Source of the DNA: Solirubrobacteraceae bacterium
Lineage (GTDB): Bacteria; Actinomycetota; Thermoleophilia; Solirubrobacterales; Solirubrobacteraceae
Assembly: GCA_030447505.1 (NCBI GenBank)
Contig: JAUJOT010000002.1
Span: 124,001-188,000 of the forward strand
DNA: 64,000 bases
Direction: 5' to 3'
Under the pieces are notes generated by a model. That model ran no database searches, was not told the origin of the DNA, and was given only the letters and a program-made list of their open reading frames with translations. This document shows positions 31,845 to 33,548 of this stretch, piece by piece. How positions within the stretch are numbered: the first letter of the stretch is position 1; each line of letters begins with the position of its first letter. The translations under genes and the position numbers were made by a program.

Positions 31845-32117
31845 TCAGCCCCCCGCGACGGCCGGCAGGATCGTCAGCTCGGCGCCGTCGGGCAGCGCCG
31901 TCTGCAGGCCGTCGAGGAAGCGGATGTCCTCGCCGCCGAGGTAGACGTTGACGAACCGGCGCAGGTCACCGTTCTGGTAGAGGCGATCGCGCAGCTCGCC
32001 GTGCGACTCGAAGACCGACTCCAGCGCCTCGCCGACGTTGGCGCCCTCGGCCTGCACGGAGGGGGCGCCGCCGACGGTGTCGCGCAGCTGGGTCGGAAGC
32101 TTGACCGTGATCGCCAT
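31845..32117 (-). CDS. cysO: CysO/MoaD-like ubiquitin-fold sulfur carrier protein
   Basis: The 90-residue beta-grasp protein begins MAITVKLPTQLRDTVGG and ends ELTILPAVAGG. The Gly-Gly tail is what is adenylated and converted to a thiocarboxylate in MoaD/ThiS/CysO carriers, and the ILPAVAGG ending is shared with mycobacterial CysO, which donates sulfur for cysteine synthesis. It starts inside the thrC stop (TGATG overlap), so it is translated with threonine synthase and sits under the same SAM riboswitch. No cysM, mec or moeB-like gene is adjacent. Confidence 0.85.
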   Translation of the reverse strand: MAITVKLPTQLRDTVGGAPSVQAEGANVGEALESVFESHGELRDRLYQNGDLRRFVNVYLGGEDIRFLDGLQTALPDGAELTILPAVAGG

Positions 32118-33361
32118 CAGACCGTCACCGACTCGGCGAACGCTTCCTCGAAGGATTCGATCGTCGGATCGACCTCGTAGTCGATGAAGGAGTGACGCAC
32201 CGCGTCGAGCGTCTTCAGGCCCTCGCCGGTTATGACGATCACGACGCGCTCCTCGCGGTCGATCGCGCCGGTCTCGGCGAGCTTCTGGAGGACCGCCGTC
32301 GTCACCCCGCCGGCCGTCTCCGTGAAGACGCCGGTCGTCTCTGCCAGCAGGCGGATGCCGGCGCGAATCTCCTGGTCGTTGACGGAGTCGATCGAGCCGC
32401 CTGTCGCCCGCGCCAGGTCGAGCGCGTACGGGCCGTCGGCGGGGTTGCCGATCGCCAGCGACTTGGCGATCGTGTGCGGCTTGACGGGGCGGCAGAAGTC
32501 CTGCCCGTCGCGGAACGCCGTCGCAACCGGCGAGCAGCCCGTCGCCTGCGCGCCGTTCATCGTCGGTACCTCGCCGTCGATCAGCCCGACGTCGATGAAC
32601 TCTGCAAAGCCCTTGCCGATCTTCGTGAACAGCGAGCCCGACGCGATCGGCACGACGACGCGGTCGGGCAGCTCCCACCCGAGCTGCTCGGCGATCTCGT
32701 AGGCGACGGTCTTCGAGCCCTCGGCGTAGTACGGGCGCATGTTGATGTTCACGAAGGCCCAGTTCTCGCGGTCGCCCGACAGCTCCGTGCACAGGCGGTT
32801 GACGTCGTCGTAGTTGCCGCGGACCTTGACGAGGTTCGTGCCGTAGACACCAGTCGCGAGCACCTTCTGCTCCTCGAGGTCGGCTGGGATCAGCACGTAG
32901 GAGGCCATCCCGAGCGCGGCGCCGTGGGCGGCGACCGAGTTGGCGAGGTTGCCCGTCGAGGCACAGGCCAGCGTGTCGAAGCCGAGCTCACGGGCGCGCG
33001 TCGCGGCGACCGAGACGACGCGGTCCTTGAACGAATGCGTCGGGTTCGCCGCGTCGTTCTTGACCCAGACCTCGCGCAGGCCGAGGCGCTCGGCGAGCCG
33101 GTCGGCGCGGATCAGCGGCGTGCAGCCCGCCGGCAGGCCCGTGCGCATCCGCGGCTGCGGGCCCGCGAGCGGCAGGAAGTCGTGGTAGCGCCACATGTTC
33201 TGCGGCCCACCCTGGATGCGCCGCCGCACCTCGCCGACGTCGGCGAGCCGCTCGTGGTCGTAGCCGACCTCGAGCGGACCGAAGCACCGCGAGCACACGT
33301 AGCGTGCCTCGAGTGGGTACTCCGTCCCGCATTCCCTGCACTTCAGCTGCTTGGCCGCCAC
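32117..33361 (-). CDS. thrC: Threonine synthase
   Basis: ThrC converts O-phosphohomoserine to threonine with PLP. The 414-residue protein has an N-terminal zinc-ribbon-like motif (CRECGTEY and CSRCFG), the PLP Lys in NPTHSFKDRVVSVAATRAR, CASTGNLANSVAAHGA, and the phosphate-binding Gly/Ser loop in VPIASGSLFTKIGKGF. The GTG at 33361 follows AAGGGG with 6 nt spacing; a longer upstream frame crosses the riboswitch and corA and is not coding. A SAM-I riboswitch precedes it, with a hairpin that sequesters the ribosome site. Confidence 0.95.
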   Translation of the reverse strand: MAAKQLKCRECGTEYPLEARYVCSRCFGPLEVGYDHERLADVGEVRRRIQGGPQNMWRYHDFLPLAGPQPRMRTGLPAGCTPLIRADRLAERLGLREVWVKNDAANPTHSFKDRVVSVAATRARELGFDTLACASTGNLANSVAAHGAALGMASYVLIPADLEEQKVLATGVYGTNLVKVRGNYDDVNRLCTELSGDRENWAFVNINMRPYYAEGSKTVAYEIAEQLGWELPDRVVVPIASGSLFTKIGKGFAEFIDVGLIDGEVPTMNGAQATGCSPVATAFRDGQDFCRPVKPHTIAKSLAIGNPADGPYALDLARATGGSIDSVNDQEIRAGIRLLAETTGVFTETAGGVTTAVLQKLAETGAIDREERVVIVITGEGLKTLDAVRHSFIDYEVDPTIESFEEAFAESVTV

Positions 33362-33369
33362 GTCGAACC

Positions 33370-33398
33370 CCTTCGCCGTATGGATCTTGTGGCGAAGG
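33370..33398 (-). promoter_or_regulatory. Shine-Dalgarno-sequestering hairpin between riboswitch and thrC
   Basis: A perfect 8-bp stem CCTTCGCC/GGCGAAGG with a 13-nt loop lies between the SAM aptamer and the GTG. Its 3' arm contains the GAAGG of the thrC ribosome site, so folding should repress translation. It is the likely expression platform; no U-run terminator is present. Confidence 0.65.
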
Positions 33399-33408
33399 CG
33401 TCTGCCAT

Positions 33409-33504
33409 TGCCACATCTGACAGGAATTGGCACCGTTTCCCGCGAACAGCGGGTTGGTTGCCGGGGCTTCGTCGGGCCTGTCCCTCCACCCCTCTGGATG
33501 TGTC
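33409..33504 (-). promoter_or_regulatory. SAM-I (S-box) riboswitch upstream of thrC
   Basis: On the minus strand the conserved S-box core is clear: AGAGGGGTGGAGGGACAGGC, then CCCGACGAAGCCCCGGCAAC, a variable hairpin CCCGCTGTTCGCGGG, then GGTGCCAATTCCTG. Flanking CACATC and GATGTG close the P1 helix. S-adenosylmethionine binding is expected to alter translation of thrC-cysO. Confidence 0.9.
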
Positions 33505-33519
33505 CAGCTGTGGGTGGGC

Positions 33520-33548
33520 ACAATATCAAGCCATGCCTAACCTTCCAA
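33520..33548 (-). promoter_or_regulatory. Promoter of thrC-cysO (TTGGAA - 17 - TATTGT)
   Basis: The -35 TTGGAA (33543-33548) and -10 TATTGT (33520-33525) are 17 nt apart. Transcription would begin around 33513, just before the aptamer. The promoter overlaps the first codons of corA on the other strand. Confidence 0.65.

What the first reader, a model, noticed from the sequence alone, without database searches (positions are those of the whole stretch)
33362..33515. SAM-I riboswitch controls threonine synthase and a sulfur carrier, probably by hiding the ribosome site
S-box riboswitches usually control methionine or SAM genes. Here one precedes thrC-cysO. Threonine synthase competes with methionine synthesis for O-phosphohomoserine, so SAM sensing makes sense as a branch-point control. 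The 8-bp hairpin CCTTCGCC/GGCGAAGG covers part of the Shine-Dalgarno sequence, which suggests translational control; whether SAM turns thrC on or off depends on how P1 and this hairpin compete.
Basis: partly seen in the sequence, partly recalled or inferred. Interest (0 to 1): 0.55.

Follow-up and report, generated by a model that had tools for sequence, protein, structure and literature searches.

The report
SAM riboswitch before likely homocysteine-making genes
A soil-type actinobacterium carries a genuine SAM-sensing RNA switch in front of a gene that databases call threonine synthase, but the evidence says this gene pair makes the methionine precursor homocysteine, so the switch is most likely ordinary feedback that shuts the pathway off by hiding the ribosome-binding site.

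Summary
The riboswitch is real: Rfam SAM-I (RF00162), window 33504-33410, minus strand, 72.1 bits, E 6.4e-15, the only copy in the genome. The 8-bp hairpin over the Shine-Dalgarno sequence is real too. The gene reading needs correcting. The genome has a separate thrC-thrB locus without SAM-I, no MetX or MetA, and its only Cys/Met-metabolism PLP enzyme is a cystathionine gamma-lyase. The riboswitch gene lies in a clade apart from ThrC and overlaps a sulfur-carrier gene ending in GG. This matches MetM-MetO (Hasebe et al. 2024, known to me through a citing paper and recall): O-phosphohomoserine to homocysteine, with an SAM riboswitch upstream in Streptomyces albulus. So this is probably end-product feedback on methionine synthesis, not control of threonine synthase. 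Best model: SAM stabilises P1, freeing the hairpin to hide the ribosome site (OFF); without SAM the P1 3' strand pairs with the hairpin's 5' arm (ON). The arrangement is widespread: in 108 of 111 SAM-I-bearing genomes of the order the best copy precedes metM. The same hairpin is a terminator in many relatives; its T-run changed at least 10 times. New member of a known kind; nothing was tested at the bench.

The parts
33410..33504 (-). SAM-I riboswitch aptamer (RF00162)
   Evidence: 72.1 bits, E 6.4e-15, model 1-108
33497..33504 (-). P1 5' strand GACACATC (six pairs CACATC/GATGTG with the 3' strand, then a mismatch)
   Evidence: position; pairing
33410..33417 (-). P1 3' strand GATGTGGC, the toggle: pairs in P1 or, as TGTGGC, with GCCACA
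   Evidence: toggle helix kept in 4 of 4 genus members
33388..33393 (-). antisequestor partner GCCACA
33391..33398 (-). sequestor hairpin 5' arm CCTTCGCC (overlaps the antisequestor partner by 3 nt)
   Evidence: z -3.36 for the leader
33370..33377 (-). sequestor hairpin 3' arm GGCGAAGG (contains GAAGG of the Shine-Dalgarno sequence)
33368..33374 (-). Shine-Dalgarno sequence GAAGGGG
   Evidence: by inspection; unpaired 0.14 with P1 held, 0.52-0.59 with the antisequestor held
33359..33361 (-). GTG start codon of metM (ATG in the three genus-mates)
32117..33361 (-). metM-type gene, 414 aa, annotated by models as threonine synthase; probable homocysteine synthase
   Evidence: TIGR00260 290.9 bits; separate clade from ThrC; SFKDRV motif
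31845..32117 (-). metO-type sulfur carrier, 90 aa, C-terminal GG; start overlaps the metM stop (TGATG)
   Evidence: SAMP1/MoaD family; best PDB relatives a ThiS/MoaD protein and the M. tuberculosis chain of 3dwg; sequence

Best explanation
A SAM-I riboswitch that turns OFF translation of a metM-metO operon, which makes homocysteine from O-phosphohomoserine with thiocarboxylated MetO as sulfur donor. Low SAM: as the RNA is made, the P1 3' strand (TGTGGC) pairs with GCCACA, the 5' arm of the next hairpin is taken, the GAAGGGG ribosome site is exposed, MetM is translated and MetO follows through the overlapping TGATG. High SAM: the ligand holds P1, the 5' arm CCTTCGCC pairs with GGCGAAGG and buries the ribosome site. 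Shown by computation: aptamer, hairpin, mutually exclusive pairings, gene neighbourhood, clade, lack of other known homocysteine routes in this genome. Inferred: SAM binding, direction, enzyme activity, translational coupling of metO.
For: Aptamer 72.1 bits. Growing the RNA with the aptamer core held: P1, then antisequestor at 0.96-0.99 (33386-33374), then P1 plus sequestor (from 33370). SD unpaired 0.14 with P1, 0.52-0.59 with the antisequestor. Toggle helix in 4 of 4 genus members; across 105 leaders own helix 5.60 bp against 4.54 in swaps, 31 of 41 genera above. Separate thrC before thrB; clade split with SH-aLRT 100. MetX in 0 of 4 genus members, MetA in 0 of 121, one PF01053 enzyme, a cystathionine gamma-lyase. 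MetH-like and MoeB/MoeZ-like genes present. SAM-I precedes metM in 108 of 111 order genomes with SAM-I and in 72 of 80 named loci chosen by protein alone; MetO follows in 75 of 80. S. albulus metM has an upstream SAM riboswitch (PMC12172450 passages).
Against: Free folding without holding the aptamer core leaves the SD paired in both states. At equilibrium OFF is favoured by 0.7 to 7.8 kcal/mol depending on the 3' end, so ON would need kinetic trapping or ribosome capture. The perfect 8-bp sequestor is not kept in the genus-mates, and in three of them the antisequestor wins to the end of the leader. P1 displacement is also common in shuffled leaders (92 of 102 against 558 of 816). The Microcystis relative of MetM shows threonine synthase and deaminase activity and does not seem to act fully as MetM in the cell (PMC12172450). 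I had no characterised MetM sequence for the tree. No Rho-dependent effect was examined.
Confidence: 0.72

Rival explanations
1. The enzyme is a true second threonine synthase (or a bifunctional one) and SAM tunes the threonine/methionine branch.
For: TIGR00260 over its cut-off, 290.9 bits; threonine synthases are the closest solved structures; the own-genome thrC at C5 is interrupted, so this copy might have to serve; the Microcystis relative keeps threonine synthase activity.
Against: Intact thrC before thrB in the three genus-mates; separate clade; conserved MetO neighbour; missing homocysteine genes.
Confidence: 0.13
2. SAM-OFF switch on metM-metO, but the main effect is on transcription or RNA stability (for example Rho-dependent termination once translation stops), the SD hairpin being only the trigger.
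For: Relatives use the same hairpin as an intrinsic terminator; an actinobacterial Mbox combines a translational platform with Rho-dependent termination (PMC12810186, title and abstract start in a search listing).
Against: No T-run in 4 of 4 genus members, no terminator-like site; Rho was not testable here.
Confidence: 0.12
3. SAM turns the operon ON.
For: The sequence alone does not prove direction, and unrestrained folding does not separate the states.
Against: P1 and the SD hairpin are compatible and appear together; the antisequestor competes with both. The homologous hairpin is a terminator in many relatives, which makes those OFF switches.
Confidence: 0.03

Closest known systems
metM-metO with upstream SAM riboswitch, Streptomyces albulus (Hasebe et al. 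2024, Appl Environ Microbiol 90:e01247-24; not held, known through passages of PMC12172450 and recall)
   Same: ThrC-like gene with a sulfur-carrier gene next to it and an SAM riboswitch upstream; no MetX or MetA in this genome
   Different: Different class of Actinomycetota; expression platform of the Streptomyces copy not compared; no activity tested here
Dual terminator/RBS expression platforms (Barrick and Breaker 2007, PMC2258182, passages read)
   Same: Several Solirubrobacteraceae relatives have the SD within the 3' side of a terminator hairpin, GGCGGAGG-TTTTTTT-ATG
   Different: In the window's genus the T-run is absent; only the SD-covering hairpin remains
SAM-I riboswitch of the Xanthomonas campestris met operon (PMC7270179, abstract and passages read)
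   Same: SAM-I aptamer with repression mainly at translation by covering the SD
   Different: That platform also binds uncharged initiator tRNA and controls other met genes; tRNA sensing was not examined here
Threonine synthase, ThrC (TIGR00260; PDB 2zsj, 6cgq, 1uim, 2d1f)
   Same: Same fold family by sequence, E down to 1e-52
   Different: Separate clade, sulfur-carrier neighbour, SFKDRV instead of SFKDRG
CysO-CysM-MoeZ cysteine pathway (M. tuberculosis; recalled, carrier in PDB 3dwg)
   Same: MoaD-like carrier ending in GG
   Different: Here the carrier sits with the ThrC-like gene; a second carrier sits with the E1 enzyme

Membership tests
SAM-I riboswitch (RF00162) | Covariance-model score above the gathering threshold over the whole model | tested here: met
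   72.1 bits against 44.4, model 1-108
SAM-I riboswitch (RF00162) | Binds SAM selectively | not testable with these tools
   needs in-line probing or ITC
SAM-I riboswitch (RF00162) | P1 mutually exclusive with an alternative pairing to the expression platform | tested here: met
   TGTGGC with P1 5' strand or with GCCACA
Translational OFF platform | Hairpin covers the SD and there is no terminator T-run | tested here: met
   5 of 7 SD bases (coordinates); no T-run in 4 of 4 genus members; none found by scan
Translational OFF platform | SD more exposed without SAM | tested here: inconclusive
   0.52-0.59 against 0.14 with the aptamer core held; no difference without holding it
MetM-MetO system | ThrC-like gene followed by a sulfur carrier with C-terminal GG | tested here: met
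   window genes; 71 of 77 order loci and 75 of 80 named loci
MetM-MetO system | Separate from the genome's ThrC | tested here: met
MetM-MetO system | Groups with characterised Streptomyces MetM | not tested
   sequence not obtainable here; unnamed 7-10 Mb actinobacterial genomes with SAM-I next to a 54-55% identical copy are suggestive only
MetM-MetO system | Makes homocysteine from O-phosphohomoserine with MetO-thiocarboxylate | not testable with these tools
   needs enzyme assay
Threonine synthase (TIGR00260) | Score above the curated cut-off | tested here: met
   290.9 against 167.1 bits; the model does not separate MetM from ThrC
Threonine synthase (TIGR00260) | Groups with the ThrC of thrC-thrB loci | tested here: not met
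   separate clade, SH-aLRT 100, 110 against 17 rows
Dual terminator/RBS platform | T-run directly after the SD-bearing hairpin | tested here: not met
   longest T-run 1-3 in the four genus members

The most novel reading that the evidence does not exclude
The metM leader is a natural series in which one hairpin, driven by the same aptamer, has moved between intrinsic terminator, terminator whose 3' arm is the ribosome site, and pure ribosome-site sequestor at least ten times in one bacterial order; in many relatives a second helix between the linker and the start region closes over the terminator as a backup lock. The window's genus is at the purely translational end of that series.
Probability: 0.5. 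Interest if true: 0.5.

Novelty: new member of a known kind. Interest (0 to 1): 0.35.

Why it matters
It corrects an annotation trap: genes called thrC that sit under SAM-I riboswitches with a sulfur carrier are most likely methionine genes. In 83 of 121 sampled genomes of this order, this one included, no MetX was detected, and none has MetA, so MetM-MetO may be their homocysteine route and the riboswitch its feedback. The 105 orthologous leaders are also a ready set for studying how a riboswitch swaps termination for ribosome hiding.

Tried and rejected
Threonine synthase under branch-point control: set aside as the leading reading because of the second thrC, the clade split and the missing homocysteine genes.

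CysO for cysteine synthesis instead of MetO: disfavoured; this genome has a second carrier (49% identical) beside the MoeB/MoeZ-like E1, and a cysteine-synthase-like ORF about 3 kb away (seen, not scanned against a library).

Intrinsic terminator at this locus: none found.

Led nowhere: a script for the core hairpin failed and was replaced. A proxy that replaced the aptamer by a short hairpin over-stabilised P1 (3 of 86 'switchable') and was replaced by one with the real core (71 of 102 against a mean fraction of 0.369 in shuffles). SD accessibility without holding the aptamer core showed no useful difference between states in any of the four families. A shuffle test of the linker-RBS helix was weak because the linkers are short; the swap test replaced it. 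Paper searches for the riboswitch with threonine synthase in Actinobacteria, or with Solirubrobacterales, gave one unrelated paper and none.

Rows dropped: of 111 best order loci, 3 have no metM (L117-L119); 3 more (L044, L083, L089) lack the exact GGTGC[CA]A motif and were left out of the 105 leader rows, though they have metM and metO. Of the 105, 3 were left out for lack of the P1 5' pattern and 7 out of the tree (metM not complete or too short). The interrupted thrC of this genome was left out of the tree. The 22 further SAM-I matches (second or third copies in a genome) were not fetched.

Full report
What is there. The minus strand of the window carries a full SAM-I aptamer at 33504-33410 (RF00162, 72.1 bits, E 6.4e-15), the only one in the genome. 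Downstream lie a hairpin with arms 33398-33391 and 33377-33370, a Shine-Dalgarno sequence GAAGGGG (33374-33368), a GTG start (33361-33359), a 414-aa ThrC-like gene and a 90-aa sulfur carrier ending AVAGG, with overlapping stop and start TGATG. The hairpin covers five of the seven SD bases. The 48-nt leader after the aptamer folds better than all 200 shuffles (z -3.36).

What the gene is. Family models call it threonine synthase (TIGR00260, 290.9 bits), but the same genome has another thrC before thrB, on another contig, without an SAM-I aptamer. That copy is interrupted by what looks like a partial repeat of about 100 bp; the three genus-mates have an intact thrC 9-30 bp before thrB. Across the order, 105 of 121 genomes have two or more TIGR00260 matches at E<=1e-40 (counted; matches, not checked to be whole genes). 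A tree of 110 metM-type and 17 thrC rows splits them on one branch with SH-aLRT 100 (quick method, with long branches that the tool flags). The motif around the PLP lysine reads SFKDRV in 201 of 211 metM rows, the other 10 lacking the pattern, and SFKDRG in 18 of 18 thrC rows (the metM rows include near-copies from the same genomes). Fourteen of 18 thrC loci have thrB in the stretch fetched.

The pathway around it. MetX is found at E<=1e-10 in 38 of 121 order genomes and in none of the four of this genus (the model's curated cut-off was reached by no genome, controls included). MetA is found in 0 of 121. The only PF01053 enzyme of this genome is a cystathionine gamma-lyase (508.7 bits against a cut-off of 440). 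Among the genus-mates, G001 has none, G072 has one nearest the same model, and G115 has one nearest a cystathionine gamma-synthase model, the last two scored on trimmed queries below the cut-offs. A full-length MetH-like gene is present, 956.4 bits, just under its cut-off of 1010.85. A MoeB/MoeZ-like E1 with a rhodanese-like part is present, with a second sulfur carrier directly after it; the two carriers are 49% identical. So the genome has the parts for carrier-dependent homocysteine synthesis and lacks the usual ones.

The known precedent. Passages of PMC12172450 cite Hasebe et al. 2024 for a homocysteine synthase MetM in Streptomyces, a metO gene similar to a sulfur-carrier gene, and an SAM riboswitch upstream of metM in S. 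albulus. I could not read Hasebe et al.; that MetM uses thiocarboxylated MetO is recalled. The same passages report that the Microcystis homologue, 51.6% identical to S. albulus MetM, has threonine synthase and deaminase activity and does not seem to act fully as MetM in the cell. This is the main reason for caution about activity.

How general it is. Of the 111 order genomes with SAM-I (of 121 searched), the best-scoring copy lies just upstream of a metM homologue in 108. MetO follows in 71 of 77 of the loci fetched with up to 2.4 kb downstream; two of the six misses are cut by contig ends. Independently, of the 80 best MetM homologues found by protein similarity in named genomes, 72 have SAM-I upstream (20 of 20, 19 of 20, 18 of 20 and 15 of 20) and 75 have MetO downstream. 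In a sample of 198 phylum genomes, 75 have a copy at 52% identity or more, and 49 of these have SAM-I within 450 nt upstream. Nonomuraea gerenzanensis, a named actinomycete, has the gene at 52.1% identity and SAM-I (68.7 bits) directly before it. The named record whose contig length equals that of relative G115 is a Solirubrobacteraceae MAG, so the window is most likely from that family.

How it works. P1 is CACATC/GATGTG. The P1 3' strand can instead pair, as TGTGGC, with GCCACA, which overlaps the hairpin's 5' arm. Holding the aptamer core and growing the RNA, P1 dominates to about 33390, the antisequestor wins at 0.96-0.99 between 33386 and 33374, and P1 with the SD hairpin takes over once 33370 is made. 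With P1 formed the SD is unpaired at 0.14; with the antisequestor formed, at 0.52-0.59. This is the layout of an OFF switch that decides while it is being transcribed. The limits are plain. Folding without holding the core leaves the SD paired in both states. At equilibrium OFF is favoured by 7.8, 5.4 and 0.7 kcal/mol for the three 3' ends tried. In the three genus-mates the same calculation, with this window's core, lets the antisequestor win to the end of the leader. The six-base toggle pairing is kept in 4 of 4 genus members; the perfect 8-bp sequestor is not.

Relatives. In 105 leaders the P1 tail is complementary to its own hairpin by 5.60 bp on average and to hairpins of other genera by 4.54 bp; 31 of 41 genera lie above their swaps. 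The paired sequences change together, for example GTGGC/GCCAC, GTGACG/CGTCAC, GTGGGG/CCCCAC, GTGAG/CTCAC. In a growing-RNA model P1 is displaced at some length in 92 of 102 leaders, but also in 558 of 816 shuffles, so that contrast is modest. The hairpin is followed by five or more T in 55 of 105 leaders (38 with the start codon more than 13 nt away, 17 within 13 nt), by four T in 6 and by a shorter run in 44. In several Solirubrobacteraceae genera the hairpin's GGAGG is itself the SD, about seven T before ATG: the dual platform of Barrick and Breaker (PMC2258182, passages). In the window's genus 0 of 4 have a run of four or more. On a metM tree of 98 rows the T-run label needs 15 changes, at least 10 of them forced by well-supported branches. 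In leaders with the start codon 13 nt or more from the hairpin, the linker before the hairpin pairs with the start region better than with that of other genera (mean -15.0 against -10.2 kcal/mol; 34 and 23 of 76 in the best 5% by the two swap schemes). That is a possible second lock; I did not see it in the window's genus.

Verdict. A real SAM-I riboswitch with a translational OFF platform in front of what is most likely metM-metO. The gene class, the riboswitch and their combination are already described in Streptomyces; this is a new member with a well-conserved presence in its order. I found no paper in the held library on this leader in Solirubrobacterales or on the terminator-to-sequestor series, but most papers of subscription journals are not held.

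Noticed in passing
L033:1489-2621 (own genome, contig C5, about 147.0-148.1 kb): The canonical thrC of this genome is interrupted by what looks like a partial repeat of about 100 bp that shifts the frame; the three genus-mates have it intact. Real or an assembly fault, not decided.
   Followed up: partly
window 33504-33534: The aptamer starts about 30 bp from the ATG of a divergent CorA-like gene (named by eye, not scanned), so the metM promoter must overlap the start of that gene; no sigma-70-like promoter was found in the stretch.
   Followed up: partly
L030, L045, L060, L069, L003, L049, L082, L097 leaders: In many relatives outside the genus the linker between P1 and the terminator pairs with the metM start region, with compensatory changes visible by eye (for example TCCGATC/GATCGGA, TCCGACC/GGTCGGA, TCCAACC/GGTTGGA): a possible nested transcription-plus-translation lock.
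   Followed up: partly
L250:1125-2679 (own genome, contig C1): A second sulfur carrier ending AMAGG directly after a MoeB/MoeZ-like E1: a likely CysO beside MetO, so the genome keeps two carriers.
   Followed up: partly
L117, L118, L119: Three order genomes (G086, G107, G120) have their best SAM-I copy not followed by metM; what it controls there was not identified.
   Followed up: no
L134 and L185: metM loci from records titled Chlamydiae bacterium and Bifidobacterium breve fall inside actinobacterial clades of the metM tree; probably mislabelled bins.
   Followed up: no
L128:5475-5549: A c-di-GMP-I-GGC riboswitch match (61.1 bits) near a metM locus of a Solirubrobacterales MAG.
   Followed up: no
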